From: a virus
Virus record (IMG/VR): IMGVR_UViG_3300032249_000097
Location: 1-27,387 of that record
Length of the DNA stretch: 27,387 bases
Direction: 5' to 3' (one strand)
The position numbers and the translations under genes were made by a program. Numbering within the stretch: the stretch's first letter is position 1; each line of letters begins with the position of its first letter. Below the pieces are notes generated by a model that saw only the letters and a list, made by a program, of their open reading frames with translations, was not told the DNA's origin and made no database searches. Shown in pieces: positions 4,333 to 24,098 of the stretch.

Positions 4333-4338
4333 TTAACT

Positions 4339-4356
4339 AGGGGGCTTCGGCCCCCT
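4339..4356 (+). terminator. UUCG-tetraloop hairpin after the SSB-like gene
   Basis: AGGGGGC and GCCCCCT form a perfect 7-bp GC-rich stem closed by a TTCG loop, seven bases after the TAA at 4330-4332. Only TTCAGG follows instead of a U-run, so it may be a weak terminator, an attenuator or an mRNA 3'-end stabiliser. It separates the highly expressed-looking SSB candidate from the rest of the operon. Confidence 0.55.
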
Positions 4357-4364
4357 TCAGGACT

Positions 4365-4643: not shown

Positions 4644-4810
4644 ACAACGAAGAGCTAATCAGGTATTGCGCGATGCTTCTCGACTCCGCCCAAGGTTTGC
4701 CTACCGAGTGGCAGACTGAACTGCTGCGCCGTTTCATGGCACTGGCTCCTCTCGACGAGTTTCCTGCTAAAGACCCTGCGCAGCTCGACCTGTTCATCGA
4801 CGCAAAATAA
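4616..4810 (+). CDS. Small phage protein, overlapping the HTH gene
   Basis: This encodes 64 residues from ATG 4616, with GGAG at 4606-4609 giving a six-base spacing. The upstream extension of the frame is opposed by the HTH gene and has no matching signal. The sequence is helical and acidic: LNNEELIRYCAMLLDSAQ, then LPTEWQTELLRRFMALAP, then a DPAQLDLFIDAK tail. It overlaps the HTH gene by 28 nt and ends 15 nt before the primase-helicase gene. I do not recognise the family. Co-translation with its neighbours points to a small replication or regulatory partner. The final QLDLFI segment resembles a clamp-binding motif (QxxLF type), which is only a suggestion. Confidence 0.6.
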   Translation: MQAVQPRSLNNEELIRYCAMLLDSAQGLPTEWQTELLRRFMALAPLDEFPAKDPAQLDLFIDAK

Positions 4811-4825
4811 AAACCAAGGACGACT

Positions 4826-7920: not shown

Positions 7921-10900
7921 TTAGAGGAGCTTACGGTAGCTCTCAGCAATTTTGATACGCATGCCTTGCAGCCTGTCCAACAGCGCGCGCTTCTTGTCGG
8001 GCTCCATGTTCGACGCTTTCACGGCGTTCATGGCCTTGGTTATTTCGCCGAGGTGCTGACGGGCATTACCTGCTACGGCTGCCCCCGCCATTTCTTTGGC
8101 GTGTTCTTGGTAGAACCCTTGAGCTTCTGCCATACGACCATCACGAACTAAGTCTTCAAAAGTCTTTTGGTGTTGGCGCAAATCTTCCATGCGGTCGTAG
8201 GTAGCGTTGACAATACCCGCCGCGTCGGTTGGTTGGAACATCCCGCCGATCACTGGCACATCGGTAATGCGCTTGGTTGCTTCTTCAGGACCGCCGGTAG
8301 TTGGGATTGCCATGTTCAGCGATTGGGCCAGCGCCACACCCATCGTGCCTGTGTAGCCACGGATAAGGTTCTCGACTTTTATAGGCGATACATCAAATGT
8401 TTTGCCGACTAGCTTTGCCACTTCGGATGTGTTACTGCGGTAGCGGTAGGCGGGCAGCATAGCTTCTTCTTGGGTGGACTCCAACGAGCGCCCCGTGAAG
8501 AATGAATAGTTAGTTACGTTTTCAACGATTGGCTTTATGCCAGCCGGTAAGAACAGAGATGTGCCGCCGGGCACAGTTTGAATAGCGATGGACTTGAACG
8601 CCTTGTACGCTTCTTCGCTGCCCTTCTCGTTGGCCATGATGTTGACCATAGCTTCGGGAATACCTTTGAAGATGTAACCAATTTCAAACGGCACGGGGAA
8701 ACGCAAAGGCTCTTTCAAACCGGGCACAGAGATAAAGAAGTTGCCGTACTTCTCTTCTGGGTTGGCGTTCTTATACGCTTCGTCGTCTTGCATCATCATG
8801 GCGTATCCGACTGCGGTCATGGCTAGTAACGAACCGCGGCGCAGCAGCTTACCTTGGATGTCCAAGCGCTCGTTCATTGGCATCTTACCCGTCAGGGCGC
8901 GATACAGCACATCCATACTCTGGACCTGCGCGTTAAAGAACGGAATCACCGTGGACAAGAAGTGCATCGAAGGAGATAAACCGCGACGGTTAAAGTTCAT
9001 GGCTTCCAACGACATCAGCGTAGCTTCCATCTCGGACAAGCCTTGCTGAATATAGGACTCATACTGGGCGCGACGAGTAGAAGCATCGGCCTCCATTGCA
9101 ATCGCTTCAGCCTTGGCAATGAACTGTCCCAACCCAACGCGACCTTCTTGTAAGTCTTTGAGGATGCGTGTCAAGTCTTGGTTGGTGCCGGTGAACACCT
9201 GACCGCCTGTGATACCGCGGGCTTCTAGTTTTGTCTTGGTGGCCGACTTGCCCAGTTGTCTGAGTGCGCCCAGAACCGGAATGAAGTCAGCGCCTGATGC
9301 CATTGGCGCAGCAAACGAGTCGCGGAACAACTGTTTGACTGGGTACATCGGGTTCAACATTACGCCCTTACGCACGCCTTGAGCAGCAGCGCCCATGAGT
9401 TTGACCAACGCGCTGTTATTGACGGGGATGCCTTCCATGCCTTTTACCAGCAAGTCAGCAGGGATGCCAATTGCATCAGTTTTTACGCGCACATACCTGT
9501 CGACACCGTGGTCTTTAAACGAAACAATGTCCGGGCCGCTTGGGTTACCGCCAAGGAACTGGGCCAGTTGCATCTCGGCCAAATTGAACATGGCGTTCTT
9601 GGCGGCAATGTTGCGTAAGCCAGCGTCCATAATCATCGAGGTGTTCTGCACAGAGCTGGTCATAAAGTCCAGCACCTTTTCTTCACCGCCAACCAGCTCC
9701 CTGAGCTGCGGCTGCTCCTTCAAGTTACCAACGCGGAACACGCCTTCACCGCCAATCAACAGCTCGACGTTGCCACCACGCTCACGGTAGTAAGGAATGT
9801 AGTCGTTGGTACTGGCTAACTGGTCAGCAATCTCAGGGGAAAGAACGCCCGTGTCTTTCAAGAACTTCATCAAGTCGCGGTTGTAGCTGTTGTACTCTGT
9901 CTGAGCACGTTTAAACACAGCCGCCAACTCCTTGTTGCTTTCGATCTGCGCTACGGCAGTTTTGATCTTGCCAGAGTCCACTTTAAAGTTGAGCTTGTCG
10001 TAACCTACGCGCTCGGCACGTTTGCCCAGCAAGTACATGGTGAACAACTGGTTGGCCGCCTCAGCGTTCATGTTAGGCGCATCCTTGAGTATCTTCACAA
10101 CGCCGGCCAAGTTAGCGCCGTCTTTACCTTCGATCAGGTACTCGGTCTGGCCATCTTTACGCTTGTACGCGGTGCGTTGTGGAACGCCGTGGCCAACAGC
10201 CTGCTGCACGTAAGACATCTTCTGGTCAGCCATGCGGAGGTAGTACATCATCTGCGTACCGATCAGCGAGTCCTTCATCACGTTGTGCGCAATGTGTTCC
10301 AGCGGGGCCAAGCGGTCGATAAACTGCGTGCGGCCTTCCAAACCGAGGTTGGCTTTGACCTGCTGGCCGATAGTCTTAGGTGACGCAATGAGTGAGTTGG
10401 CTGTGTTCAGCGCTTCTTCCATGCCCGGCGCTGTGGCTTTGCGTGCGTACACGCGTGGCTCAATCGGGGCTTCGCCGTTCTTAGGTTCCGGTGCTGGCTC
10501 CGCAGCAATCATGCTTGGTGCAATAACTTCTGCTGTAAAAGACTTAAACTTTTTGTAGTCTTCTTCAGGTTCAAGCGCTTCGTTAAACATGTCAACAACC
10601 AACTTGTTTGCTTGGTTAGCGTCTTCTGCCCATGTGCCCACCATTTTGGCAAAGTTGTCGTAGTAGTCTAGGGCTAGTGTCGTATCGGTCATTTCCAACT
10701 CGGTACTATTCATCAACGTGCGGTACATGTCTTTTGGCAAGATGCGTTTTGCTGCACCGTTTAAACGAGATATAAACAAGTTGTTAAAAGCCAAGAAAAC
10801 TTTTAAGTCATCGTCCGACAACACGCCCTCTTGCATACGTGTTTCCGAGTCACTAAGATCAAGGTTTATTTTCTTTGCGTGCTCCCGCATTAAAGAACGT

Positions 10901-13900
10901 GCGCGAAGGCCCAAACGGTCCATTGTTTTTTCAGAGTTTTGGTCAATATTGACAAACTTGGCGTCGGGTAAAAACACGTGCAGCCCGGATTCAACTGTGC
11001 GCATTCGTAACTCGCGGATTGTTTTAGCGCCGTTTACTTGCAAATACGATTGATTAACTGGGCGAATCAAATCAACAACTGCCGTAGAAGGCAAAGTTAA
11101 AACGGTTGGCCTGTCCTTATTACTGTTAAATACAACTACATCAGGTACGTAGTTCAACGCGGGGAGACTGAGTTCCCCTCCAAACATGTGCACGCTGCTT
11201 ATGCGTTCAAGTGCGGGGAGCACGGCTTGTTTTTTTCCGTAAGACGACATACTTATCTCTTTAGCGCCTTTAAGTTCGTCTACAGGTATCGTAAAATCTT
11301 TGTTGTTAAAGCGACCTTCAGCAGTTGCAGATTTGTCGTTAGCGTCTACGTCGTCAGCAAAGAAGTAACCGTTTGCATACGCTTTTTCTCCGGCAGCTAA
11401 AAACTTTTGCGCAAAAAACTCACGCACTTCTGGGTCTGGTTCCGGACGCCCGACATACCCGTCCAAGTTCTTAAACGCCAACATGCGGTCCATAGCGCGT
11501 GTGTCCAACTTTCCGTCGTCGCTAATTAACCGTGGGTTTGCAAAAAGCGTGTCCAGAGAAAAATCTTTCTCTCCTTTGGCTACAGCAATCAAATCACGTT
11601 TCTTGTTGATTTCGTCAACGTATACTTGCGCACCTTCAAAATTACGCTCCGTCAAAAACTGTTCGGCAATCGCTTGCTGGTCAGCCGTAAGTGCTTGGTT
11701 GGGAGAGTTTCCTCGGACCTCGCCAATTTTTTCTGTGCCGTCCATGCGCACGGCTACTTCTGGGTTACCGTTCTGGTAGTAAACGTAGAAGTCACCATTC
11801 TCAATTTGGTGACGTGCAGTGGTAACCGTAGCCCCCGTACACCAAGGAGTGCCTGCGCAAGCGGCGTTCAACTTAATTGCTGCTTGCTCTAGGTTCGTGC
11901 TGTCCTTGTATTTTTTAGGTGCGCGTCCGGGTTCGCGTTCCCCGCTTGTATTACGTTCAGCGGTTGTTTGGTCAAACTTGTACCACCCGTTTCGGGTTTC
12001 GTTGAGTTTGGCGTTGCGGTTAGCGTTCTTTTGCATACCCTCCAAGAAAGCAGCTTTAAGGGATTTGCCTGCACGCAACTCTTCAATAATTGCTGCTGCG
12101 TCTTTAGAACTGACCACGGCCACGCTGTGACGGTTGTTTGGTTCGATTGATGCCAGCTTGAGTCTGCCTGTTTTATCCGAAAGCACCGCATACTTAGATG
12201 CAGCTTTGGCAACAAGTGCCTGCTCCACAAACGTAAACTCCGGGGTTTCCATCATGTTCTTGATGAGGGATCGCAAGTCTTTCTTGCGGCTCATAGAAAT
12301 AGATAGCGCTTCGCGTTGACGCAACGCAGGGTCTTCTTGTGCTTTCAAGTTAGCGTATGTGGCGGCCTCTGCTTCGACATAGTGCAACGGGTTTTCCGCT
12401 GTATATTCTTTGCCGTCAGACATGCGTGCAGAGTAGTCCAACTTGCTTTCTTCTGCTTCAGCCACGTAATCCATTGGCTTAGCGTACATGTCGTCCAAGT
12501 AGTCTCGGCCGATGCGGTTGGCATCCTCGACGGTGCGGTCTTTCTGTTTGATCTCAGTCGTTCCAAACTGTTCAGCAAACTGCTTCATCGAGTTACTACC
12601 GTCATGCAGCGCGGCAATGTCTTTCTGAGACAGGCGACGAGACACGGGTTTTTCAGTGCCTCTAGTCTCCACGCTTGACGGCATCATCAGTGCATCAACA
12701 GATTGGAGCGCAGCACCCAGCATAGTTTCTGGACGTTCAATACCCAGCATGCGCAAGATGGTGCTCTTAAATCCTTCCCAAGCATCTGAAAGTTTCCACT
12801 TCTTCTCGCGCATCTGCTCTTGCAAGTTGCGGTTGGACATGACTTCGGCCACAAACTCAGACAGGCTGGACTTGGCGTTCACGCTGGTAAAGCGTGGGTC
12901 ATTCTTAACAGAAGCGTGGAGCGCCATCAGTTCGCGCTTGGCAATCAGTTGTTGACGGGTCAGCAAGTTCTCATCCATCTGGATGACGCGTTCGGTTGCG
13001 GCGTGCGTACCTTCGTGCAGCAAAATTTCCTGAGACAAGCCGCCGTTGCGGTTGAGTTCAATGTTCTTACTTGTAGCGCTGCCCAGTACTTCGTTGCCGT
13101 CTTCGTCAACAACCGTGTCCTTAATCTCGACGTTAGTAGCGCCCAGCAACGCGGCGAGGCGAGCGGATACTACTTGGTTGAGCTTGGATGCGTTCTTGTC
13201 GTTGGCCAGATCGTCCAACGCTTTGGTGATATTGTTTTTTTCTAACGCTGCAACTTGTGCATCAGACAGGTTAGGGCTTTCAACCTCAACGCCACGCGCC
13301 CACTTGGGGGTAGTGCCTGTCTTTTCGGCACGTTTCATCTCATCAGTAATACGGCGCTGCTCAAGGGAACCGAGGGCTTTGCGTGTAGCTTTGTCCTCGG
13401 CAGCAATACCTTCTTGCACCTTACGTGCTTTATCCACGCGTTGTTCAGCGCGGGCTTTTTGTTTTGCCAGACCTGCGGGTACCGGCTTGTTGTTTTCTTC
13501 CAAGTAACTTACGCGGCGGTCAAGCTCGGACAGCTCCGCACGGCGGGCCAGCAACGCATTGGTAACCACGTTTGCTCGACCCACCAAATCTTTGCGCTTA
13601 CCACTTTGCGTAGTCTTACCTGTACGGACGTCTTTTTCAATCGGTCCTTTAATGGGTGCAGGCAACCCGCCCGTGATGCCCAGTTTCTTGTTTAGCTTGC
13701 GAGCGTTGGCAATCTGCTCTGCTTCAAACGCAATGTCTGCGTCAGTCTTTTCACCCAAGCGCTTGCGCTGGACGGGGGCTTTCTCAGGCAACGCCGCAAG
13801 TTCAGCTTCTGTTGCGTCAATCTTTTCCTGAATCTCAGCTTTCTTTTTAGCGCTCTTAACCTTAGTCAACTGGTCTTCCAGCGAACCGATCTTGCTACGC

Positions 13901-16900
13901 AGCTCTTGCTCTTCCTGTGCCAAACCAGAAGTGTCACGCTCAATGCGTTCGCCCTCAAGTCCCAGACCTTCGCGGCCTGCTTGGGCAGCTTTCTTGTAGC
14001 GCTCATTAGATACGGCTGTAGTTTCATCCGGGGCAGCTTCGGCTTTGATCTCGGCCTCGCGCTCCTTACGATACGCAGCTTGGGCTTCGCGCAACCGCTT
14101 GGTTGCAGACTCGACTTCACCTGCGGCCTTCTTGGCTTGGCGATCAATCGAGCGACGCAGTACCACGTCCTGTTGGTAGGACGTCATTAAACTGTCCAGC
14201 TTCTCACGAGCGTTGTCAATGAGGCTGGCTGCACGTTTGACCAAGCCGTCGAGCTTTTCAATCTCGGCGGTGAGGGACGCTGGGTCTTTGGCTGCCTTAA
14301 TAATGTCGTTGAAGTTTTGAAGAGTGTCAGGAGCGCCAGCACTTTGTTTGGCTGCTTCAGCAAGCTGTACCAAGTCGGCACGATCTTTTGCGTTCAAGCC
14401 CCTTAGACCACGCTGAATATCCCGCAATGCTTCCAAGCGCATAGGTACGCCCGTCAACACGGACTCAAGTTCTACCACTTGGCGCACGGCAGGGGCGTAC
14501 CACTTGGGCTCTTTACGCTGTTCCGCGGCAGACTCGGATAGAGTTTCTGCTTTGGCCTTGGCTTCGTTTAGCGCTGTGGTTGCAGCACGCAGCTCTTTAT
14601 TTACGCTTGGTACGTACTTACTTATCTGTTCCAGCGCAGCTTGGTTATCTGCCTTGGCTTGAGCCAGCGACTCGCGCATCCCTTGGATGTCCTTGGAGTC
14701 GAGCATCTTTTGGAAGTTGGCGGGGGTGGCACGTTGCACCTGTACCGCAGCTTCGGGAAACAAGTCTTTCTGTGGTTGAGCGCTAGTGCGTTGCAACTCT
14801 TCTGGCGTAGCGCCGGGGCGAGTCTCGCTGCGACCGGCTGCTTCGTGCGCCTTCATCATTTCGTCCAGATCACGGACGTCGTACTCACTAGGCAAGTTGC
14901 CCTCAGCAATCCGCTGCGCTGTCTCACGCGCAAGGCTTACAAACTCAGGGTCGTTGTTGGTGCGCAGTCCTTTGCGCAAGTTGTCCAACAAACCAACAGT
15001 GGCTTCGTTAAGGTCAACTTCTTTACCGCCTGTCTTGGCTTGCTTGAACAACGTGGCAATACTGGCCAGATCGCCCACACGGGCGGAGGGCTTCTCGGTT
15101 GTCGTTGGCTCAACGCGGGTACGCCCCTTGGTCTCGACTTGGCTCAACACCTGTTCGATAAACTGCTTGGCAGCATCGGCATCAGTCGCAGCAATGTTGG
15201 GCGTGGATTTAAGCGTTAGCTCTTTTGGTCCTGCAATACGGGGGCCGGTCTGACGTGGGGTCTCCATCGTCTTGCCCTCGATGCGGTTGCCTTCTTGGTC
15301 TTCGTAGTAATACTTCTGCCCGGCTGGCGCTTGCAGTTTTGGTGTCAACGTGTCTTGTTGCTCGGTCTGCTTACGCTGAACCGCCTTGTACAAGTTTTGG
15401 TACACCGCCTCGCGGGTAATATTCTGCAAAGCCTTAACGCTAATCACTTTGTCAACAAACTGGTCCCAGTTGTTGGTCAGGGTATTCAAGCCCTCTAGCG
15501 CACGGGCACGAGCTTCGGCAATCTCCCAATCGGCCATAGGCGGCAGACCAAACGCTTTACGGCGAGCTTCAATCTCAGCAGCGTGTTGGGCAATGTACTT
15601 TTCCTTAGCGTCTCTGAGAATAGCTTCGCGCTTCTCAGGCAGCATGATTGTTTTTGACGCCAGCGTACGGGCCATACCCAGCAAAGTGTTACGCTGGCTG
15701 CTTGCGTGTTTATCAGCTTCCGCCTCATTGACGCGCATTTCGGGCAGTTTGCTACGGCTGATGTATTCGGCAGCAGTCTTGCCGCCCTTAGTGCCCAAAC
15801 CGCCTTCAGTGGGGATAGCGCGTTTCTCATCGAGCTGGCGCTTGATTTCGTTTTGCTGGTCGCGGTCACGTGTCAGACGGGCAATAGCTAACTGCGCTTG
15901 AAGATCGCGCACGTCTTGCTTACGGGTTCCAAGACCTAAGTACACATCGCCGGGGGAGATCGTACGGTCCGCAATTGGAAACGCTTCAACGAGCTTGTTA
16001 ATCAGCGGGTCTTCGCCCAACTGGGTTTCTTCTTCAGACAAAGGTTCCTGCGCAGAACCAATACGCTCAGATATTTTCTTAGGCTCACCGCGATAGGCAG
16101 GGAGATTTTCAGGGCGTCCCAACCCACGAACTGCCAAAATTTCAGGAGCCACGCGGCGTTCTGTTTCGGCTTCGCCACTCAAGCGTTTTTCTTCGTCGCG
16201 CTGTGCTTGCAGAGCTTGACGCTCTTCTTCTTCCACTGTGCCCAAGCGAAGTTTAGCTAACCCAGTAGCGGCTGCACCCGCCGCAACATTCTTCTGGCGT
16301 TCGCGTTTAGCGTCCAGCTCCAGTTTGCTGCGCAGCGTCTCAATAATTCGGTTGCTTTGTTTGTCGGTCATGCCCGGCATGGGCGTAGCCGTCTTCACTA
16401 TCAACATTGCTTGTTGGGGGTCGGCTGCCAAATACTCAACGTAATCGCTTAAACCTGCGTTTGGAACTCGGTCACGTGCCAGCGCAATTTGCTGTGCTGC
16501 GTAGCCTGCAACGGGGTTCTCTGGCTTGATGTCGTAGCCTAGACCTTGCAGTTCAGCGTTAAGTTCTTCTTGTGTTGCACCTTGGCGCGGCGCTTTACCG
16601 GCACGGCCTTGCATTTGCTCGGCGGCGTATTCTTCAGGGGATAAGTTTTTGACACGCTCGTACTCGGCTTGCTCGGCAGCACGTTGCTGCGCCTGTGCCT
16701 CATACTGCTTGAGGTATGCAGCTTGGTCTTTTTCTTGTTGCTTGACGGCACGTTGCTGTTGTTTAGTCAGCGGTGCAATCGCTGCGCCAAGTTTCTCGGC
16801 TTCTTCAACAGGCTCACCACGCAATGTGGGTTCGGGAGCTTGTTCCGTAGCTGTAAGGTCAGATGGCTGTTGTTGCGGCTGTACAAAATCTGCCTGTGCT

Positions 16901-17802
16901 GCTTGGCGCTTTGCTCCAGCACGTTCTCCAAAACGACCCACAGGGGCCAGCACACCGCCAAGGACAGCACCGCCGAGAAAGTTGTCAAGGTATTCTTGTT
17001 TGGCTTCGTTGTCGGTCAGATTCAAACCGGCTTGCAAACGCTCAAACACTTGTTGCGCAGCTTCGGTCAAACCTTCTACGCCAGCGACTTTGCCTGTAGT
17101 CAGAGCGTAGTCTTGGAGCGTTTTGCTCAAGCCTTGTTGAGCAATAGCTTTGGCTTGTTCGGTTGTCAGCTTTTCGCCAGCAGCGCCAGCAATCTTGTTG
17201 ATGCCGGGAATCATGCGAAGCGCTAAGTTGTCCAACAACGCTTGCGGTAACGCTGCGCCAACAGCGCTACGTAAATCTGTTTCAGCCAGCGTCTTGCCGG
17301 TATCTGTTTGCCGAGACAAGTTACTGCCCGCAAACTGCAAAAGACTTGTTCCAGTACGTGCAATAGCCGCAGCACCAATACCCGCGACAGTAGCTTGAGG
17401 AGCGAGTGCGCCAGCAACAACGGGGGCCACCATATAGGGGATAGACCCGCCAGCAAGTTCGCCGATTTTTGTAAGGGGGGCTTGGGTCCAACTTTCTTGA
17501 GTTGGCTGGAAGATAGCGCGGGCTTTTTCTTCTTGTGCTTTCTGGTACTGTTCGGCTTTGTTGATGTCCATCAACCCCGTGCGACCCGCCAACGCGCCAA
17601 CATTGCCCTTGAGCGATTCGTAGCTAGCTTCCATCGCTGGCATAAAGCCAGATTTAGGCGCTGTCTTTGGCGTTACTTCTTCCAAACCGGGGGGAGCTGT
17701 TGCCAGCATCCCCTGTGCAATCCTAGCCAGTTCTCTTGCTGCTTCTACATCGCCTGCGGCGTCTGCGTTTTCTAGAGCTTTAAGTACTTGGCTGATGTCC
17801 AT
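7921..17802 (-). CDS. Giant 3293-aa internal virion protein (polyvalent, LPD38-like)
   Basis: This is one uninterrupted 3293-codon frame and the last gene of the virion operon. Visible parts from the N-terminus: hydrophobic segments at about 121-148 and 273-288; long charged Gln/Ala/Glu-rich helices to about 1500; a metallopeptidase-like site HEGTH at 1596-1600 with a following SEFVAE (E1649 or E1653 as third ligand); a GTPWCTG segment around W1987/C1988, resembling PcfJ-like proteins; an LRR-like stretch at about 2173-2288; and a C-terminal region (about 2930-3160) that I recognise as LPD38-like, common at the end of giant phage proteins. The start ATG lies four bases after the transglycosylase stop with only a weak GGG signal, so translation is probably coupled. 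By position it matches T7 gp16, an ejected core protein, and is inferred to enter the host with the DNA. The enzymatic parts are motif calls. Confidence 0.85.
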   Translation of the reverse strand: MDISQVLKALENADAAGDVEAARELARIAQGMLATAPPGLEEVTPKTAPKSGFMPAMEASYESLKGNVGALAGRTGLMDINKAEQYQKAQEEKARAIFQPTQESWTQAPLTKIGELAGGSIPYMVAPVVAGALAPQATVAGIGAAAIARTGTSLLQFAGSNLSRQTDTGKTLAETDLRSAVGAALPQALLDNLALRMIPGINKIAGAAGEKLTTEQAKAIAQQGLSKTLQDYALTTGKVAGVEGLTEAAQQVFERLQAGLNLTDNEAKQEYLDNFLGGAVLGGVLAPVGRFGERAGAKRQAAQADFVQPQQQPSDLTATEQAPEPTLRGEPVEEAEKLGAAIAPLTKQQQRAVKQQEKDQAAYLKQYEAQAQQRAAEQAEYERVKNLSPEEYAAEQMQGRAGKAPRQGATQEELNAELQGLGYDIKPENPVAGYAAQQIALARDRVPNAGLSDYVEYLAADPQQAMLIVKTATPMPGMTDKQSNRIIETLRSKLELDAKRERQKNVAAGAAATGLAKLRLGTVEEEERQALQAQRDEEKRLSGEAETERRVAPEILAVRGLGRPENLPAYRGEPKKISERIGSAQEPLSEEETQLGEDPLINKLVEAFPIADRTISPGDVYLGLGTRKQDVRDLQAQLAIARLTRDRDQQNEIKRQLDEKRAIPTEGGLGTKGGKTAAEYISRSKLPEMRVNEAEADKHASSQRNTLLGMARTLASKTIMLPEKREAILRDAKEKYIAQHAAEIEARRKAFGLPPMADWEIAEARARALEGLNTLTNNWDQFVDKVISVKALQNITREAVYQNLYKAVQRKQTEQQDTLTPKLQAPAGQKYYYEDQEGNRIEGKTMETPRQTGPRIAGPKELTLKSTPNIAATDADAAKQFIEQVLSQVETKGRTRVEPTTTEKPSARVGDLASIATLFKQAKTGGKEVDLNEATVGLLDNLRKGLRTNNDPEFVSLARETAQRIAEGNLPSEYDVRDLDEMMKAHEAAGRSETRPGATPEELQRTSAQPQKDLFPEAAVQVQRATPANFQKMLDSKDIQGMRESLAQAKADNQAALEQISKYVPSVNKELRAATTALNEAKAKAETLSESAAEQRKEPKWYAPAVRQVVELESVLTGVPMRLEALRDIQRGLRGLNAKDRADLVQLAEAAKQSAGAPDTLQNFNDIIKAAKDPASLTAEIEKLDGLVKRAASLIDNAREKLDSLMTSYQQDVVLRRSIDRQAKKAAGEVESATKRLREAQAAYRKEREAEIKAEAAPDETTAVSNERYKKAAQAGREGLGLEGERIERDTSGLAQEEQELRSKIGSLEDQLTKVKSAKKKAEIQEKIDATEAELAALPEKAPVQRKRLGEKTDADIAFEAEQIANARKLNKKLGITGGLPAPIKGPIEKDVRTGKTTQSGKRKDLVGRANVVTNALLARRAELSELDRRVSYLEENNKPVPAGLAKQKARAEQRVDKARKVQEGIAAEDKATRKALGSLEQRRITDEMKRAEKTGTTPKWARGVEVESPNLSDAQVAALEKNNITKALDDLANDKNASKLNQVVSARLAALLGATNVEIKDTVVDEDGNEVLGSATSKNIELNRNGGLSQEILLHEGTHAATERVIQMDENLLTRQQLIAKRELMALHASVKNDPRFTSVNAKSSLSEFVAEVMSNRNLQEQMREKKWKLSDAWEGFKSTILRMLGIERPETMLGAALQSVDALMMPSSVETRGTEKPVSRRLSQKDIAALHDGSNSMKQFAEQFGTTEIKQKDRTVEDANRIGRDYLDDMYAKPMDYVAEAEESKLDYSARMSDGKEYTAENPLHYVEAEAATYANLKAQEDPALRQREALSISMSRKKDLRSLIKNMMETPEFTFVEQALVAKAASKYAVLSDKTGRLKLASIEPNNRHSVAVVSSKDAAAIIEELRAGKSLKAAFLEGMQKNANRNAKLNETRNGWYKFDQTTAERNTSGEREPGRAPKKYKDSTNLEQAAIKLNAACAGTPWCTGATVTTARHQIENGDFYVYYQNGNPEVAVRMDGTEKIGEVRGNSPNQALTADQQAIAEQFLTERNFEGAQVYVDEINKKRDLIAVAKGEKDFSLDTLFANPRLISDDGKLDTRAMDRMLAFKNLDGYVGRPEPDPEVREFFAQKFLAAGEKAYANGYFFADDVDANDKSATAEGRFNNKDFTIPVDELKGAKEISMSSYGKKQAVLPALERISSVHMFGGELSLPALNYVPDVVVFNSNKDRPTVLTLPSTAVVDLIRPVNQSYLQVNGAKTIRELRMRTVESGLHVFLPDAKFVNIDQNSEKTMDRLGLRARSLMREHAKKINLDLSDSETRMQEGVLSDDDLKVFLAFNNLFISRLNGAAKRILPKDMYRTLMNSTELEMTDTTLALDYYDNFAKMVGTWAEDANQANKLVVDMFNEALEPEEDYKKFKSFTAEVIAPSMIAAEPAPEPKNGEAPIEPRVYARKATAPGMEEALNTANSLIASPKTIGQQVKANLGLEGRTQFIDRLAPLEHIAHNVMKDSLIGTQMMYYLRMADQKMSYVQQAVGHGVPQRTAYKRKDGQTEYLIEGKDGANLAGVVKILKDAPNMNAEAANQLFTMYLLGKRAERVGYDKLNFKVDSGKIKTAVAQIESNKELAAVFKRAQTEYNSYNRDLMKFLKDTGVLSPEIADQLASTNDYIPYYRERGGNVELLIGGEGVFRVGNLKEQPQLRELVGGEEKVLDFMTSSVQNTSMIMDAGLRNIAAKNAMFNLAEMQLAQFLGGNPSGPDIVSFKDHGVDRYVRVKTDAIGIPADLLVKGMEGIPVNNSALVKLMGAAAQGVRKGVMLNPMYPVKQLFRDSFAAPMASGADFIPVLGALRQLGKSATKTKLEARGITGGQVFTGTNQDLTRILKDLQEGRVGLGQFIAKAEAIAMEADASTRRAQYESYIQQGLSEMEATLMSLEAMNFNRRGLSPSMHFLSTVIPFFNAQVQSMDVLYRALTGKMPMNERLDIQGKLLRRGSLLAMTAVGYAMMMQDDEAYKNANPEEKYGNFFISVPGLKEPLRFPVPFEIGYIFKGIPEAMVNIMANEKGSEEAYKAFKSIAIQTVPGGTSLFLPAGIKPIVENVTNYSFFTGRSLESTQEEAMLPAYRYRSNTSEVAKLVGKTFDVSPIKVENLIRGYTGTMGVALAQSLNMAIPTTGGPEEATKRITDVPVIGGMFQPTDAAGIVNATYDRMEDLRQHQKTFEDLVRDGRMAEAQGFYQEHAKEMAGAAVAGNARQHLGEITKAMNAVKASNMEPDKKRALLDRLQGMRIKIAESYRKLL
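8320..9010 (-). other. LPD38-like C-terminal region of the giant protein
   Basis: Residues about 2930-3160 contain NFNRRGLSPSMHFLSTVIPF, a hydrophobic MTAVGYAMMM helix and RFPVPFEIGYIFKGIPEA. I recognise this pattern from large polyvalent-protein domain 38 at the end of very long phage proteins. Its biochemical role is not known. The name is from memory of the family and was not checked by a profile search. Confidence 0.55.
10940..11285 (-). other. LRR-like segment inside the giant protein
   Basis: Residues about 2173-2288 alternate short strands with L/V at regular spacing: LPALERISSVHMFG, LSLPALNYVPDVVVF, VLTLPSTAVVDLI and YLQVNGAKTIRELRM. This suggests a leucine-rich-repeat or related solenoid, usually a binding surface. 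The repeats are degenerate. Base composition here is lower in GC than on both sides. Confidence 0.4.
11640..11990 (-). other. GTxWCTG (PcfJ-like) segment inside the giant protein
   Basis: The order is GWYKF, then AGTPWCTGA (W1987, C1988), ENGDFYVYYQNGNPEVAVRM and KIGEVRGNSPN. The GTxWCT core followed by a y-v-y-NGxPxVAvR strand pair and an evrG-x-xN end recurs in phage and plasmid proteins including PcfJ. The function of that fold is unknown to me. Only motif similarity is claimed. Confidence 0.4.
12840..13120 (-). other. HEGTH metallopeptidase-like domain inside the giant protein
   Basis: The ILLHEGTHAATERVI helix (H1596, E1597, H1600) is an HExxH zinc motif. About 50 residues later SEFVAEVMSN offers E1649 or E1653 as the third ligand. 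This is the layout of the metallopeptidase domains often embedded in phage polyvalent proteins. It could cleave the virion protein itself or a host target after ejection. Confidence 0.6.
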
Positions 17803-17806
17803 TGTG

Positions 17807-19963
17807 TTACCCGGTATATTTTTGGATCAGTGACATTTGATCCGGACTAAGTTTTGGGGCTGTTATGCCCGACTGACCGCTCATTGCGGTTTCCGCCATT
17901 CTAAGGTAATCGTCGAGTTTTGGATACTGCATTTGCAAAAATGGGCTAGCCATCCATTGCTTGGCAACCGTCTCACGGGTTTGAGGCTCACGGTCCAGTT
18001 CTTTCATTCTGGCGTATGCGGCTGCGATCTTGGGGTCTTGCAGGGCGTTCAAACGCTGAATAATTGGATCAACACCGTAGTTTTTGGCCAACGCGGTTTT
18101 GTACAGCGTGTCAACTTCTTGTTTCTCGCGTTCACGTTTGGCACCAATAGCACCAATACCGGCTTGACCAGCGGATGCCAAGAGATCACCAAACTTGTTA
18201 CCGGTGCCGGGTTTGTTGTTGGCCATCATGCCAAGACCCAACATGAGCAAGTCGTCGTCACTGAAACGGCTGTTAGGGCTTTTGCCTGTGGCAGCTTTCT
18301 CCGTTTCTTTGTCGCCTTTGCCAGACGCGGGGTTAAAACCACCGCCAACATCAATATTGTCTGGAGCGTTGGGGTCGCCCATCATTTTGTTAAGCGCTGT
18401 CTCGCCTGTTGGTTCTGGCTGCACGTACGTGCCTGCTGTGGCTGCGGGAGAAGCGGCGGCTGCAATACCTTGTGCACGAGCCAACTCCGCGTTGCGGGTA
18501 ATAATTTCCGGGCGGGTGCTTTCCGTTCCCTGCGAGGCTTTGCCTGACAGGACGGTGTCACGCCATGCTTTGGCTTCGTCAATGTCCGCTAACTGGCGTG
18601 CAACGGCTGCACCGTTTTTAACGGGTGGTTGGCCACGGCCTTGCACCATTGTCTCTGCTGAACCGGGACCGGCCAAGCGTGGGGTCTCCGCCATGCGTGT
18701 TTTTTGAGCAGCCAAGGCTTCAAGCTCAGAAGCAGGGATACCCGCACGGCCTTGTTTGGGAGACAGGTTGCCCATGTGCGCCAAGTAGGGCGGAATCTTC
18801 AGGTCTTCAAGCGTTTTGGCAAACCCTTCTGACACAGCGCGGCCACCTTCGGTGCGCGGTTCATACGTGACTTGGCCAGCTTTCTCACGGAAAGAACGCT
18901 CCATCTCGGCACGGTCGGCACCTTTGCCAGACAAGATGTTGGGCACTTGCCCGAGCACAGCAGCACCGCCAGCGGTTGGGATGGCTGCAAGACCCGTCAT
19001 GTACTGCAACGCTGTCTCACCTGCGCCGATTAAGCCTTGGTTGCCTGTGATAGCACGACGGGGTTCACTAGTCTGCGCTTGTGGCGCGGCTTGGTTTGGC
19101 ACCTCACCTGCGACAGCACTGGGGATCAACGCGCCGGTCACGCCTTCGGCAACGCGGCGTACGGTTTTGTTCAGGTAGTTCTGAGGCTCGACGCTGAGCT
19201 TGGCCGGTACTATTTGGCCTTGGTTCTCGCGCAGATGACGGTCAAGGTAAGGCTCACCTTGGTTATATGCAACAGCCATCTTGGATTTGTCACCGCCGTA
19301 CTTTTTGTTCAAGTCCGTCATAAAACGCAGAGAAGCGTCGATGTTTTTGTAGGGGTCAGTGCGCTCTTTGGGGTCAAGACCATAGGCTTTAGCCGTGGCC
19401 TTTGTCAACTGGCCGATGCCAACAGGGCCGGTAGGCGACTTAGCGTCGTGCTTGTAGCGAGACTCGGTGTTAAACACGCTGTCAACAAACATCGGGTCAA
19501 GACCTAACTCTTCGGCACGCTTCAAAGCGTATGCACGGTATTGTTCTGGGGAGCCTTGCACAGCGCCCCTATCTGCAAAACGTGCAACCCCGCCCTCGGC
19601 CATACGGATCACAGGCTCGTTGTTGTACGCAATCTGTTCAGAAGAATCTTCTCCGTAGCCAGCAATACCGCCGTCAGCCATGTTCTGCATATTAGGAGCA
19701 GGAAGAGCGCCGATGCCCCGTTGTTCTGGGAGCTGGTCTTGTGCGGCCATACCCATCACCGCTTGGTCGGCAACTGTTGGTTGCTTCTGGCCCGCCATCT
19801 GCGCTTGTTGGGAAGCACGCAGTGCTTTGCGGTCGTTGCTCTCCGCTACCGCTAGGGATAACACGTACGGGTTGGTCTTGTGCATTGCAGCATATTGCTG
19901 CAACTGCTGGTCGGGCATGTTGCGTAGCGTTGACGTAATCTGATTGACGTTTGGGATTGCCAT
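17807..19963 (-). CDS. Virion-associated lytic transglycosylase
   Basis: This 718-aa protein has a clear AAGGAA ribosome binding site. Residues about 138-245 form an SLT-type lysozyme-like domain: catalytic E167 in NTESRY, the GPVGIGQLTKATAKAYGLD loop at 179-197, and AYNQGE at 232-237. It cleaves the glycan strands of peptidoglycan, and being inside a virion operon it probably opens the wall locally during DNA ejection, like the N-terminal domain of T7 gp16. Before the domain lie two copies of a short GG motif, MADGGIAGY (95-103) and MAEGGVARF (121-129). After it come a Gly/Ala-rich hydrophobic stretch (about 310-345), low-complexity linkers and a helical C-terminus. In T7 the transglycosylase and the giant C-terminal part are one protein; here they are two adjacent genes four bases apart. 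Confidence 0.85.
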   Translation of the reverse strand: MAIPNVNQITSTLRNMPDQQLQQYAAMHKTNPYVLSLAVAESNDRKALRASQQAQMAGQKQPTVADQAVMGMAAQDQLPEQRGIGALPAPNMQNMADGGIAGYGEDSSEQIAYNNEPVIRMAEGGVARFADRGAVQGSPEQYRAYALKRAEELGLDPMFVDSVFNTESRYKHDAKSPTGPVGIGQLTKATAKAYGLDPKERTDPYKNIDASLRFMTDLNKKYGGDKSKMAVAYNQGEPYLDRHLRENQGQIVPAKLSVEPQNYLNKTVRRVAEGVTGALIPSAVAGEVPNQAAPQAQTSEPRRAITGNQGLIGAGETALQYMTGLAAIPTAGGAAVLGQVPNILSGKGADRAEMERSFREKAGQVTYEPRTEGGRAVSEGFAKTLEDLKIPPYLAHMGNLSPKQGRAGIPASELEALAAQKTRMAETPRLAGPGSAETMVQGRGQPPVKNGAAVARQLADIDEAKAWRDTVLSGKASQGTESTRPEIITRNAELARAQGIAAAASPAATAGTYVQPEPTGETALNKMMGDPNAPDNIDVGGGFNPASGKGDKETEKAATGKSPNSRFSDDDLLMLGLGMMANNKPGTGNKFGDLLASAGQAGIGAIGAKREREKQEVDTLYKTALAKNYGVDPIIQRLNALQDPKIAAAYARMKELDREPQTRETVAKQWMASPFLQMQYPKLDDYLRMAETAMSGQSGITAPKLSPDQMSLIQKYTG

Positions 19964-19972
19964 TTTTGTTCC

Positions 19973-20932
19973 TTATGCCATCTTTGCCATAGCTAAACCA
20001 GCCAGACCGTCAGACTTTACATGACCCCCGTCTTTGTAAAGACCAAGCGCTTTGCCGGTAATACCAGCGCCAGCTACTTGAGACAGCGTGCTTGGCGGTT
20101 GTTGGTATACCTGCGAGGTCTGATTGGTCATGGGCAAGCCGCGTAGCAAGTTGGACATAAAGCTCAACTGTTGGTATGGGTGGTTCAGGTTGTTCAAATA
20201 GTCTTGGTACTGCGTGTTCATCAAGTTCTGGACTTGCTGTTGCTGCTGACCGCCGTACTGGTTCTGCATCTGGTTGATGCCCATGTTTTGCTGGTACTGG
20301 TTCTGGCCAATGTTAGCCAAATTGGACGCCGCTTGGTTGGCAGTCTGCAAACCTTGAAGGCCAAGCCCCGCGCCAAACTGTTGCTGTTGAGCGTTCAGTT
20401 GGTTCTGTGTGTTGTACTGCTGCTGCGCTTGATTAAATGCGTTGTACTGGTTCTGCCCTAAATTGCGTTGCAACTCAGCGTTGCCTTGACTGCGCATGAT
20501 TGCATCGCGGCCACCACCGAAGGCTCCAGCATTGGCCGCTTGAGCGGCTTGCGCCTGTTGAGAAATCCCTGCATTGCGCCGCGCTGCCGTATCCATGACG
20601 TCCAAATACGGATTCATCATGCTTCTAGCGGTATCGCCAGTGAAGTTAGACGGCTGGAATGTGTACTGCGTGTTCAATGCGCCGAGGCCAGCCATACCGG
20701 CCATAGCGGAAGCATCTCGTAACTGAGGCGCAGCCTGCATCAATCCAGCGTTTTGGTACGCCTGTTGTTGAAGAGGCGTGAACTGGGCAACGCGCTCCCC
20801 CTGATATTGCATGTAGGGGTTTTGGTTAATGTCTGTCAGCGCTTGACCTTGGCCTAGCATCGACTCGACGTACGGTTTTGCGTAGTCGGGGATGCTGGTC
20901 TGCGTAACATTGGTTTGGGTTGCGTCAGCCAT
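19973..20932 (-). CDS. Gln/Asn-rich internal or tail virion protein
   Basis: This 319-aa protein has AAGGAG seven bases before its ATG; that signal also carries the stop of the upstream gene. The N-terminus, IPDYAKPYVESMLGQGQ, resembles a start seen in many environmental phage virion proteins. Residues about 125-260 are dominated by Q, N, A and Y with runs such as NAQQQQF and GGQQQQQVQN, apparently a long polar helix or disordered segment. The C-terminus carries YKDGGHV (D301-G303) and LAGLAMAKMA. By position (before the transglycosylase and the giant protein) and composition it is the analogue of T7 gp14 or a related ejection protein. No enzymatic motif is present and the assignment is by context. 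Confidence 0.65.
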   Translation of the reverse strand: MADATQTNVTQTSIPDYAKPYVESMLGQGQALTDINQNPYMQYQGERVAQFTPLQQQAYQNAGLMQAAPQLRDASAMAGMAGLGALNTQYTFQPSNFTGDTARSMMNPYLDVMDTAARRNAGISQQAQAAQAANAGAFGGGRDAIMRSQGNAELQRNLGQNQYNAFNQAQQQYNTQNQLNAQQQQFGAGLGLQGLQTANQAASNLANIGQNQYQQNMGINQMQNQYGGQQQQQVQNLMNTQYQDYLNNLNHPYQQLSFMSNLLRGLPMTNQTSQVYQQPPSTLSQVAGAGITGKALGLYKDGGHVKSDGLAGLAMAKMA

Positions 20933-20941
20933 GTCGGCTCC

Positions 20942-23791
20942 TTATGCTGGGAGGTATTTGTCGGAGCGGCTGTTGGCAGCCACCTTGCCTTTGCCGGTGG
21001 TTTTACCACGGGCCTTTTGGACACGGTCCATCATTTGGTACAGCTTTCGTGCGCCAGCATCAGTGGATCCGTTGCCAAGTTCCGAAACGATACGGGCAGG
21101 AACCACGAACTCGCCGTCAGCCAAACGGGCTGGCTGCTTGTCGCCAATTGAAGCGGGGATGCTATCCGACACGCCGTCACCCGGGCCTTTGAGCAAACTG
21201 CCGCCATCAGAGTAGCCGCCGAGGTTGTAGCCCTGACCGCCACCGGCCAAAGCGGTGATACCCCCGTTGGCAAAAGAACCGTTGTCGTTTTCTACGGGGG
21301 TTTCTTTAACGGGCACATCCGCTTTAGCAGGGAAACGCTTCTTGGCTTCAGCCACCGAAATACCCAAAGACGCCGCAAGTTGCTCGTAAGAGACGTTGTT
21401 TTGCGCCATCCATACAGGGCGATCGAGTAAGCCTTCTTTGAGTTGTTGAACGAGGGAACCAATGAAACCTGTTGTGGCTGTTGGTGTAACCAAGTTGGCG
21501 GGGTCCGCCACAAACGCTCTCAGCTCGTCTTTGTTCATGCCGCGAGTGGTCTGACCCGTGTCTCGATTGAAGTTGAACGGTTTGTAATCTGGGTTAGCTT
21601 CGTAGCTGCGTGTTGCGGGGTTAAAGCGTTGTGCAAAGCGTGTGTTGTCTGCTGGAACGCCAAGCACGGACTCAGAGTACGGTTTCATAACTTCGCCAGT
21701 CTTCGTGTATGGCTTAGTTGGATACTCGCCCGACCCCATCAAGTAGTCGTACGCTGCGCGAGAACCGCTGGTCTGCTTATCAAATAGCTGCGCATGTTCT
21801 GCCGCAGTTTTGGGCGTGTATGGTGTGTAGCCTGTGCTGCCGCCACCAGCGGTGTACGCATCTGTGACTTGGCCAATCCCAGTAAAACCACCATAAGGAC
21901 GACCGGGAATATTAGGCGTAACTGTCTTTGAACCGTCGGGGTTTAGCGTGATGTCGCCGGGGTTGATGTAGTTACCGTATGGGTTACTTGTGCCGGGGGG
22001 CGCGTACGTTTTCGGGGTAGTTGTTTCTCCGCCTGTGTATGTATCTTTTGTTGTACCACCACCACCACCGGGAGTAGGGAGAGTAATGGTTGGTTTAATA
22101 ATCGGCTTTTCTTTAGCTGCGTCATAGCGGCGCTGCACTTCTGCCTCAGTCAGACCTGTGGCAATGGAAATGTCTTTAACAGTTAAGGTGTTGTTGTCCA
22201 TAAACTTCACCCAGTCTTTGTCAGAAGGGGTTACTTTATCTGTCAACGGGTCAAATTTCAAAACCTTGTCCGCTACATCGTACGCACGCGATACGGTGCC
22301 TTGGTTCCAGTAGCCCTTGCCCCAGTTAGGGTCGTTAGCCCGCATTGCTGTGGCAAATTCGCCCGCAGTCATGCCTTGGCCTGTCAGGTTTTGGAAAGTG
22401 TTCAGTGTGCCTGAACCACGCTGCGTGCTGGTCGGGTCGTAGTAGCCTTGGGCTAAACCAGAAATGTATTGGTTTACCGCATTGGGGTTGGCGTTGAACT
22501 GCGCAATAGCGTCGTTTACATTTACGTTTGCGTTCTTGGGGTCAGAGAAGTAGCTACCCATTTGCTCGTTGGTGTAGCTTGTGTACGGGTTGAACGTCGC
22601 TGAGTTAATGCCTGCATTGGAGAAGTAGTCGTTAATCTGACCCGCGTCGTAGCTTGTAGCGCGGTCAATATCTGCTGCGGAAACGCCGTACTGTTGTGCA
22701 GCGGCAGCAATAGCTGCGGGGTCATCCCGATTCGCCTCTACAAACGAAGCAATCTCTGCATCGGACACACCACCGCCCTCATCATAGTGCTGCACACCAC
22801 CGCCATTAGCTAAGGCCACGATGCCGCCATCGGCTGCATTAAAACTGCGACTGCCAAACTGATCCGCTGGGATGGGAGTCTGCGCTGTGTAGCGCTGACC
22901 GTATGGGTCGTAGTTGAATGGGCGGATATAGCCGGGGGACTGTTTAGCGTTGCTAAAGTCTTTCTTTTCGTCAAACAAACCACTGCCTAATGCTCCAGCA
23001 GCCGCAAAACCTGCGCCCCCCAACACACTAGAAGGACCGCCCATAGAAGATGCAGCATTAGTTTTCATCTGAGCGCTCAAAGCGTCCAAACCGCCCTTGC
23101 TTGTGGCGCGGTCAAAACCAGCACCAATTTTGTCAAAGTAGCTAGGTTGTGCAATAGGCGGTGCTTGTGTGATTGTCTGAACAGTTTGCCCTGTCTGCGC
23201 GGCATTGATTGGGGACACAGACGGGGGCAGTCCGTACTGTGCCGCAGCATCTTGCGCGGCTTTCAGTTGGGCCCCTGTGGTAGTCTCGGAAATGCCAGCG
23301 TTTGCCAGATTTGTTGCTGCGTTTGCTTGGTTTGCGGCAAAGGCTTGATCGGCAGCCAAGTCTGTCCCACTCAACGCCGCTTCCCCCGCTGCTTTTTCTG
23401 TCAATGCCTGTCCACCCAAACCTGCTAAGCCTTCGCCCAAACCAAAGCCGCCGTAAGCGCCTAAACCCGCCATCAAACCTTGCTGCAAGTTGCCGGTGGC
23501 CAAAGCAGTTACACCGCCCACCATAAGACCCGCGCCCATAGCAGTAGACGCCAAGCCAATACCCGCAGGTCCGAGCATAGCGCCAAGAGCAACGGGGGCG
23601 GCCACCTTAACTAATTCCTTCAGGCCAAACGCTTCAGGCAGACCTGTATCGGGGTTGATTGTTAGTGTAGTTCCGTGCTTTTCCGCAAGGGCTTGCAGCC
23701 CGTGCACTTCGCTTGGGGTCATGTGAACAAGCATCGAGTCGCCATTACGGCCGTACGATGACATGTGTTGTGCAATAGCTGGAAGGCTCAT
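20942..23791 (-). CDS. Large Gly-rich virion protein with DGEFVVPA C-terminal motif
   Basis: This 949-aa protein has an AGAGG ribosome binding site. Near the N-terminus is MLVHMTPSEVHGLQALAEKHG followed by LTINPDTGLPEA, a segment common at the start of environmental phage tail or core proteins. Residues about 55-120 are glycine-rich and hydrophobic (GIGLASTAMGAGLMVGG and further) and could insert into membrane. Two GG motifs occur, AADGGIVAL (D321-V325) and FANGGITAL (N842-T846), with more GGG turns around them. The middle (about 340-800) is disordered, rich in Asn, Tyr, Pro and Thr. The C-terminus has LADGEFVVPARIV (892-899 core), a motif widespread at the end of tape-measure and core proteins. 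It is inferred to be an ejected core or tail-internal protein. Its exact role is unknown. Confidence 0.65.
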   Translation of the reverse strand: MSLPAIAQHMSSYGRNGDSMLVHMTPSEVHGLQALAEKHGTTLTINPDTGLPEAFGLKELVKVAAPVALGAMLGPAGIGLASTAMGAGLMVGGVTALATGNLQQGLMAGLGAYGGFGLGEGLAGLGGQALTEKAAGEAALSGTDLAADQAFAANQANAATNLANAGISETTTGAQLKAAQDAAAQYGLPPSVSPINAAQTGQTVQTITQAPPIAQPSYFDKIGAGFDRATSKGGLDALSAQMKTNAASSMGGPSSVLGGAGFAAAGALGSGLFDEKKDFSNAKQSPGYIRPFNYDPYGQRYTAQTPIPADQFGSRSFNAADGGIVALANGGGVQHYDEGGGVSDAEIASFVEANRDDPAAIAAAAQQYGVSAADIDRATSYDAGQINDYFSNAGINSATFNPYTSYTNEQMGSYFSDPKNANVNVNDAIAQFNANPNAVNQYISGLAQGYYDPTSTQRGSGTLNTFQNLTGQGMTAGEFATAMRANDPNWGKGYWNQGTVSRAYDVADKVLKFDPLTDKVTPSDKDWVKFMDNNTLTVKDISIATGLTEAEVQRRYDAAKEKPIIKPTITLPTPGGGGGTTKDTYTGGETTTPKTYAPPGTSNPYGNYINPGDITLNPDGSKTVTPNIPGRPYGGFTGIGQVTDAYTAGGGSTGYTPYTPKTAAEHAQLFDKQTSGSRAAYDYLMGSGEYPTKPYTKTGEVMKPYSESVLGVPADNTRFAQRFNPATRSYEANPDYKPFNFNRDTGQTTRGMNKDELRAFVADPANLVTPTATTGFIGSLVQQLKEGLLDRPVWMAQNNVSYEQLAASLGISVAEAKKRFPAKADVPVKETPVENDNGSFANGGITALAGGGQGYNLGGYSDGGSLLKGPGDGVSDSIPASIGDKQPARLADGEFVVPARIVSELGNGSTDAGARKLYQMMDRVQKARGKTTGKGKVAANSRSDKYLPA

Positions 23792-23825: not shown

Positions 23826-24098
23826 TCATGTAGCGGTCTTTATGCGAAGCACTTGGCTGTTGGCTGTGGCTCCAGTTGTCGTATCTCGGAACACGTCTCC
23901 GGGCCGCAATGTGGCAATGTCAGCATCCGTTGGCAGGTACGCCAAGTCCAAATACAGCGTTGTGCCGCCAGACGCTCCGGGCGTAGCCACTTGGGAAAAG
24001 AACAAACGCAAGACGTTGTTAAGCTGGTCTTGATACCGGCGCTCGTATTCGTCGGGGGCCAGCGGTAAGTTGGGTGGGGTTAAGCCAAGCTGTGACAT
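23826..24098 (-). CDS. Small conserved virion protein
   Basis: This 90-aa protein has an ATG that shares its A with the TAA of the upstream tail gene (TAATG at 24096-24100), so translation is coupled. It starts with a proline-rich arm, then an amphipathic helix DEYERRYQDQLNNVLRLFFSQV, then two short beta segments, TTLYLDLAYLP and PGDVFRDTT. I recognise the DEYERRYQDQLNNVLRLFF pattern from small genes beside tail proteins in environmental podoviruses, but know no function. It may be a connector or assembly factor for the tail nozzle. Confidence 0.65.
   Translation of the reverse strand: MSQLGLTPPNLPLAPDEYERRYQDQLNNVLRLFFSQVATPGASGGTTLYLDLAYLPTDADIATLRPGDVFRDTTTGATANSQVLRIKTAT

What the first reader, a model, noticed from the sequence alone, without database searches (positions are those of the whole stretch)
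7921..17802. A 3293-residue mosaic virion protein fills over a third of the window
One uninterrupted frame joins hydrophobic segments, long charged helices, a metallopeptidase site, a GTxWCTG segment, an LRR-like segment and an LPD38-like end. If it is packaged and ejected like T7 gp16, the phage delivers a multi-activity effector with its DNA. Seen: frame and motifs. Known: gp14-16 ejection in T7-like phages, LPD domains in giant phage proteins. Inferred: ejection and effector role.
Basis: partly seen in the sequence, partly recalled or inferred. Interest (0 to 1): 0.65.

Follow-up and report, generated by a model that had tools for sequence, protein, structure and literature searches.

The report
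Mosaic giant phage ejection protein
A third of this phage fragment is one 3293-residue protein of a kind other phages pack into the particle and probably inject into the bacterium; its parts are swapped between phages, and one part is shared with bacterial proteins that hypermutate their own recognition end.

Summary
The frame is real: minus strand, 17802 to 7921, 3293 aa, 361 kDa, starting 4 nt after a transglycosylase gene. Relatives keep it (84 dereplicated complete giants, 2086-3672 aa). It is a phage-type "polyvalent protein": N-block, long helical middle, zincin metallopeptidase, optional cassette, ~840-aa LPD38 C-terminus.

Packaging is inferred. JC1 gp69, a relative of the LPD38 end, was found in purified virions by mass spectrometry. 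In JC1 the transglycosylase domain is fused to that giant; here it lies in the adjacent upstream gene in 81 of 97 loci. The LPD38 end shows no detectable sequence relation to T7 gp16.

New points: (1) The metallopeptidase is related by profile to N4 virion RNA polymerase (E 2e-6) and to the PhiM1 ejectosome protein TEP (E 5e-6), in the stretch its authors called endolysin/exotransglycosidase-like. (2) The slot between peptidase and C-terminus is exchangeable: nothing, ADP-ribosyltransferase-like, or (here) a GTxWCTG domain plus solenoid. (3) The GTxWCTG domain has no hit in the libraries searched but occurs in >200 bacterial loci (Patescibacteria, gut Bacilli), before retroelement-hypermutated ends or tandem repeats: perhaps a recognition-guided effector.

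Packaging, ejection and effector activity are untested in this phage.

The parts
7921..17802 (-). 3293-aa giant polyvalent/ejection-type protein, 361.5 kDa
   Evidence: conserved giants
16753..17802 (-). N-terminal block (res 1-350), with one hydrophobic stretch 116-134; detected in 37 of 84 giants
13351..16752 (-). charged, poorly conserved middle (res 351-1484); its two halves match only 7-8 of 84 giants
12613..13350 (-). zincin metallopeptidase domain (res 1485-1730), HExxH 1596-1600, downstream invariant Glu 1649 and 1653
11608..12423 (-). 'WC' domain (res 1794-2065), GTPWCTG 1984-1990, invariant Cys 1988; weak GNAT-like fold match
10942..11367 (-). beta-solenoid/LRR-like segment (res 2146-2287), the fastest-evolving part of the cassette
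10438..10941 (-). mostly helical linker (res 2288-2455)
7924..10437 (-). C-terminal domain (res 2456-3293), present in all 84 giants, includes LPD38 (8248-8784)
17807..19963 (-). 718-aa protein with SLT transglycosylase domain (T7 gp16 type), directly upstream (4-nt gap)
19973..20932 (-). 319-aa protein, PHROG 4287 'DNA ejection protein'
20942..23791 (-). 949-aa protein of the virion module, no family
24098..26497 (-). 799-aa virion structural protein, PHROG 3287

Best explanation
It is the last, largest member of a podovirus-type ejection operon: a phage-type polyvalent protein that is packed in the head and leaves with the DNA. Proposed working: (1) the SLT partner encoded just upstream opens peptidoglycan; (2) the helical middle and the conserved ~840-aa LPD38 end form the structural/ejection frame; (3) the zincin before that end is a core ejectosome part that processes the giant or a neighbour around ejection; (4) the exchangeable slot between zincin and C-terminus carries cargo, here a WC domain plus a fast-evolving solenoid whose bacterial relatives put the same domain in front of hypermutated or repeat recognition modules, so it most likely binds and modifies a host component. 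Shown here by computation: frame, domain order, homologies, synteny, cassette exchange. Inferred: packaging in this phage, ejection, peptidase activity, and effector activity of the WC-solenoid cassette.
For: LPD38 E=3e-32. The C-terminal profile finds JC1 gp69 (hmmsearch 1.8e-17; hhalign E 2e-10, colinear to the C-terminus), and JC1 gp69 was detected in CsCl virions (51 unique peptides, PMC9144972). SLT gene directly upstream in 81 of 97 loci; the same SLT domain stands at the N-terminus of JC1 gp69 and of T7 gp16. PHROG 4287 'DNA ejection protein' in the same operon. Zincin: 36/36 invariant HExxH plus Glu; structure match to zincins of the lethal-factor/PPEP fold, Z 6-7, about 130-165 residues; profile match to the N4 vRNAP family (score 55.5, null max 29.2) and the PhiM1 TEP family (51.6, null max 31.6). 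A peptidase motif precedes the C-terminus in about 82 of 84 giants (69 by motif within 900 aa, shuffled control 0; 14 more, all WC types, by profile further upstream; L014's motif is doubtful). Cassette classes: WC+solenoid 30, ART-like 16, other/none 38. L064 is 70% identical at the C-terminus yet has neither the HExxH-type peptidase nor WC. WC family in bacteria: hhalign E 1.6e-27.
Against: No direct virion data for this phage. The C-terminal domain has no detectable sequence relation to T7 gp16, PhiM1 TEP or the N4 C-terminal domain, and its structural match to the PhiM1 ejectosome is within background (Z 6.5). Peptidase and WC activities are untested; the GNAT-like fold match is weak (Z 6.4, 84 residues). 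The giants L011 and probably L014 lack a peptidase directly before the C-terminus.
Confidence: 0.72

Rival explanations
1. It is mainly a structural ejectosome or DNA-organising protein; zincin, WC and solenoid are degenerate or purely architectural, and nothing is delivered as an effector.
For: PhiM1 TEP and N4 vRNAP carry the same zincin inside the ejectosome protein (PMC11440229, PMC12633501); the middle is long charged material with little conservation.
Against: HExxH plus Glu, and the W-C-T, D-F-Y, R, E and R-G residues of the WC domain, are invariant while flanks drift; the cassette is gained, lost and replaced by an ART-like domain.
Confidence: 0.3
2. The WC-solenoid cassette specifically counters host defence: it recognises a defence or surface-associated host protein, as DarB-type polyvalent proteins counter restriction.
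For: Polyvalent proteins are widely tied to conflict (PMC5512222); the solenoid is at most 33% identical between giants that share 60% or more at WC and C-terminus; bacterial WC proteins carry DGR-diversified or repeat ends.
Against: No target known; no methylase/helicase of the DarB kind in the chain.
Confidence: 0.3
3. It is an ordinary T7 gp16 homologue that has grown by insertion.
For: Same position at the end of the ejection operon; gp16-type SLT next door.
Against: No profile similarity of the C-terminus to gp16 or PhiM1 TEP; SLT is in another gene.
Confidence: 0.08

Closest known systems
Burkholderia phage JC1 gp69 (DarB-like, LPD38), Bcep22-like podoviruses
   Same: Homologous C-terminal ~670 residues to the very end, an HExxH motif upstream, last large gene of the virion module, SLT domain associated (fused there); virion-associated by mass spectrometry (PMC9144972).
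   Different: JC1 has methylase-helicase (DarB) cargo and 4515 aa; the window protein has no such domains but a WC-solenoid cassette, and SLT in a separate gene.
Giants of Vibrio phage 1.232.O, Escherichia phage PTXU04, Achromobacter phage CF418P1
   Same: C-terminal domain colinear (hhalign prob 100), HExxxH motif upstream, virion module.
   Different: The cassette profile does not match them; other cargo (e.g. a methylase annotation in Vibrio 1.232.O).
Coliphage N4 virion RNA polymerase gp50
   Same: Giant ejected protein (~3500 aa, 4 +/- 1 copies; PMC12633501) with a zincin before a large helical C-terminal domain; zincin homologous by profile.
   Different: RNA polymerase cargo; its C2 domain is not detectably related to the LPD38 end.
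Pectobacterium phage PhiM1 tetrameric ejection protein (TEP, PDB 8vb2)
   Same: Zincin homologous by profile (E 5e-6) at residues 381-510; HExxH in PhiM1 and all 8 relatives checked.
   Different: Short (1263 aa), no cassette; C-terminal relation unproven. Its authors called this region endolysin/exotransglycosidase-like (PMC11440229).
Bacterial WC-domain proteins (Patescibacteria DGR targets; Bacilli repeat proteins)
   Same: Same domain over 224 aligned columns, same order: WC then recognition/repeat module.
   Different: Free-standing cellular proteins, mostly ~550-930 aa; no LPD38 or peptidase family hit in those scanned.

Membership tests
Phage-type polyvalent protein (Iyer et al. 2017, PMC5512222) | one long chain joining several unrelated domains from the polyvalent set (MPTase, LPD) | tested here: met
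   LPD38; MPTase by structure and profile; WC-solenoid
Phage-type polyvalent protein (Iyer et al. 2017, PMC5512222) | encoded with late/virion genes | tested here: met
   virion structural, ejection-protein and SLT genes on the same strand upstream
Phage-type polyvalent protein (Iyer et al. 2017, PMC5512222) | packaged and delivered with the DNA | not testable with these tools
   only by homology to JC1 gp69, found in virions (PMC9144972)
Zincin metallopeptidase of polyvalent/N4 vRNAP type | HExxH plus downstream Glu on a zincin fold | tested here: met
   36/36 invariant; fold match Z 6-7; profile to N4. Activity not tested.
T7 gp16 ejection protein | N-terminal SLT domain in the same chain | tested here: not met
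   SLT is in the neighbouring gene
T7 gp16 ejection protein | sequence homology over the ejection/channel part | tested here: inconclusive
   hhalign prob 0.1 to T7 gp16, 0.3 to PhiM1 TEP; no detectable relation, absence is not proof
DarB-like antirestriction protein | adenine methylase plus SWI2/SNF2 helicase in the chain | tested here: not met
   only LPD38 in Pfam at E<=0.1
N4-like virion RNA polymerase | single-subunit RNA polymerase domain in the chain | tested here: not met
   no polymerase hit in Pfam, PHROGs or NCBIfam
GNAT acetyltransferase (WC domain) | GNAT fold with CoA-binding motif | tested here: inconclusive
   many GNAT-fold chains among the top 50 for residues 1936-2056, Z at most 6.4 over 84 residues; no family hit

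The most novel reading that the evidence does not exclude
The WC domain is a previously unnamed effector domain of cellular conflict proteins whose target is set by a changeable C-terminal recogniser (DGR-diversified in Patescibacteria, tandem repeats in Bacilli). Phages have captured it with its recogniser into an interchangeable slot of an ejected giant, next to a zincin that is a shared core part of podophage ejectosomes and releases the cargo after entry.
Probability: 0.3. Interest if true: 0.85.

Novelty: new variant of a known kind. Interest (0 to 1): 0.6.

Why it matters
Giant phage proteins with LPD domains are known but their working is not. This locus shows a constant frame (zincin plus LPD38 end) with an exchangeable cargo slot, ties that zincin to two ejection proteins of known structure (N4, PhiM1), and so makes it directly testable whether a protease is a general part of podophage ejectosomes. 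It also links phage ejection proteins with a bacterial domain that sits in front of retroelement-hypermutated recognition modules, which points to a recognition-guided effector.

Tried and rejected
Reading the + strand of the given interval: dozens of stops. tblastn of residues 1-2400 against 50,697 phages: none. phmmer/hmmsearch of the giant, the C-terminal and the peptidase-cassette profiles against PDB sequences: none. Foldseek of both models against PDB: nothing at E<=0.001. The structural match of the C-terminal domain to PhiM1 TEP (8vb2, Z 6.5) looked collinear with the peptidase match but is inside background and the profile comparison is negative, so I do not claim it. 8vb2 and N4 gp50 (9pnt) also appear among the matches of the peptidase model, but the rows give only end points and the 9pnt range does not obviously sit on its HExxH domain, so the N4 and PhiM1 links rest on profile comparison. 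C-terminal domain against N4 C2 and T7 gp16: negative. The first genome scan with the 272-aa WC alignment found nothing because of the patterns chosen; the 114-aa core found 203 relatives. Neighbour proteins (319 aa, 949 aa) against T7 gp13-16 and PhiM1 ejection proteins: no relation. The match of the phage solenoid to the bacterial repeats is only suggestive (best E 0.0016; 41 of 57 above their shuffles). Pfam missed the ART-like domain of relatives; it is called here by motif only.

Full report
OBSERVATION. The frame 7921-17802 is real but on the minus strand (17802 to 7921), 3293 codons, 361.5 kDa, pI 6.4. Its ATG lies 4 nt after the stop of a 718-aa gene. It is no chance frame: 14 viral contigs encode relatives, several over most of its length, and 306 contigs carry its C-terminal part. 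Of 84 dereplicated complete giants the lengths are 2086-3672 aa, median 2966.

SETTING. The window is a whole virus record of 27,387 bases classed as linear, so perhaps a fragment. The minus-strand half is a virion and lysis module: holin-like, M15 peptidase, 799-aa virion structural protein (PHROG 3287), 949-aa protein, 319-aa 'DNA ejection protein' (PHROG 4287), 718-aa protein with an SLT transglycosylase domain, then the giant. The + strand half holds convergent replication-type genes; three of the four tested recur in 113-128 of the relative loci. The SLT gene is immediately upstream of the giant in 81 of 97 loci.

C-TERMINUS. Residues 2456-3293 occur in all 84 giants and contain LPD38. 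The same domain ends the giants of Vibrio phage 1.232.O, PTXU04 and Achromobacter phage CF418P1 (hhalign prob 100) and of Burkholderia phage JC1 gp69 (hmmsearch 1.8e-17, hhalign E 2e-10, three shuffled controls at E 0.14-0.5). JC1 gp69 was found in CsCl-purified virions with 51 unique peptides (PMC9144972). JC1 gp69 also carries an SLT domain at its N-terminus that matches the SLT of the window's neighbour gene (hhalign E 7e-10): fused in one phage, adjacent genes in the other. P1 DarB, another virion-packaged giant, has an N-terminal targeting signal (PMC9024508). This is the case for packaging; it is indirect.

METALLOPEPTIDASE. Residues 1485-1730 hold HExxH (1596) and downstream Glu, invariant in 36 of 36 sequences. 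The predicted structure (mean pLDDT 81) matches zincins of the lethal-factor/PPEP fold at Z 6-7, the fold class named for polyvalent MPTases by Iyer et al. (PMC5512222). This is a likeness of fold, not of function. Foldseek against predicted viral proteins gives a phage 'internal core protein' (E 2e-4) and polyvalent proteins (E 5e-7 and weaker), and at E 0.01 a vRNAP of Vibrio phage SBP1. Profile comparison: against the PhiM1 ejection protein family, score 51.6, E 5e-6, residues 381-510 (120 column-shuffled controls: mean 18.7, max 31.6); against the N4 vRNAP family, score 55.5, E 2e-6 (60 controls: max 29.2); PhiM1 against N4, E 4e-5. The HExxH is present in all nine PhiM1-family members checked. 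In the PhiM1 paper the stretch Asp268-Asp528 of this protein is called endolysin/exotransglycosidase-like (PMC11440229); my reading is that it is a zincin. In N4 the motif was noted (PMC12633501, PMC5512222).

CASSETTE. Between zincin and C-terminus the relatives differ: 25 residues only (median, 15 giants), an ART-like segment (GTWHG..F..FD motif, 16 giants), or WC plus solenoid (30 giants, zincin-to-WC gap median 65). A peptidase motif precedes the C-terminus in 69 of 84 giants within 900 aa, and in none of the shuffled sequences; 14 more, all with WC, have the peptidase further upstream by profile. L011 has none there and the motif of L014 is doubtful, as L011 has no such residues at the same place. 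Modules have separate ancestry: L064 is 70% identical at the C-terminus but has no HExxH-type peptidase and no WC; L066 shares N-block (52%) and C-terminus (68%) and nothing detectable between; L020 shares N-block, peptidase, WC and C-terminus at 60-68% but not the middle.

WC DOMAIN. Residues 1794-2065. No Pfam, PHROG or NCBIfam family. W-C-T, G-D-F-Y, R, E, R-G and Q are invariant in 18 diverse members; the whole giant has only two cysteines, both here. The second half resembles GNAT-fold chains weakly (Z up to 6.4, 84 residues). A second genome scan found 203 bacterial loci, of which 78 were read, mainly gut Bacilli and Patescibacteria; homology extends over 224 columns (hhalign E 1.6e-27). 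In Bacilli the domain is followed by tandem ~21-22-residue LRR-like repeats, in some by DUF4116 repeats. In Patescibacteria a reverse transcriptase (RVT_1) and bAvd gene lie nearby (L174, L178, L183, L230) and the gene's 3' end has a nearby copy differing almost only at adenines of the copy: L166 9/9, L178 10/10, L183 13/13, L237 10/10, L230 12/13, L174 15/23. These look like diversity-generating retroelement targets (DGRs in Patescibacteria: PMC8144416). In the phage giants the segment after WC is 33% identical at most between proteins sharing 60% or more elsewhere. From the common order, WC then a changeable recogniser, I infer an effector guided by recognition. WC also occurs in another kind of giant (L059, L060, L062), where the C-terminal profile of this family was not found.

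LIMITS. No virion data for this phage; no activity tested. The C-terminal model is only moderate (pLDDT 71) and has no convincing structural match. The middle third (351-1484) stays unexplained. Only one structure job covered the cassette, so the WC domain was not searched on its own.

VERDICT. A new variant of a known kind: a phage-type polyvalent protein in an ejection operon, with two links I did not find in the papers read: a shared zincin across three ejection-protein lineages, and a cargo domain shared with hypermutated bacterial proteins.

Noticed in passing
L166, L174, L178, L183, L230, L237: Bacterial (mostly patescibacterial) WC-domain genes look like DGR targets: reverse transcriptase and bAvd nearby (L174, L178, L183, L230), and template/variable copies differing almost only at template adenines.
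   Followed up: partly
L189, L201, L203, L206: In gut Bacilli the WC-repeat gene sits between a gyrase-B/ParE-like and a topoisomerase IV subunit A gene.
   Followed up: no
L144:12198-15986: PhiM1 tetrameric ejection protein: the stretch published as endolysin/exotransglycosidase-like carries a conserved HExxH and is a zincin by profile.
   Followed up: partly
L059, L060, L062: WC domain inside another kind of giant; L059 and L062 also carry HExxxH and HExxH motifs and end in a C-terminus not matched by this family's profile.
   Followed up: no
L063:9293-11332: Free-standing 679-aa WC-domain protein on a contig classed as viral, of the patescibacterial type.
   Followed up: no
window 17807-23791: Short DGG/EGG-type motifs recur in the 718-, 319- and 949-aa virion proteins (e.g. 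NMADGGIAGYG, YKDGGHVKSDG, AADGGIVALANGG).
   Followed up: no
L066, L110, L117, L132 and others: ART-like segment (GTWHG..F..FD...GTYRAQ) after an HExxxH peptidase in related giants; Pfam's ART models miss it.
   Followed up: partly
window 372-7780: Convergent + strand replication-type genes (222 aa, SNF2-type helicase 520 aa, 322 aa, primase-like 984 aa; functions guessed from sequence); the last three recur in 113-128 of the relative loci.
   Followed up: no
L008, L012: Giant split into two frames; frameshift or sequencing error not resolved.
   Followed up: no
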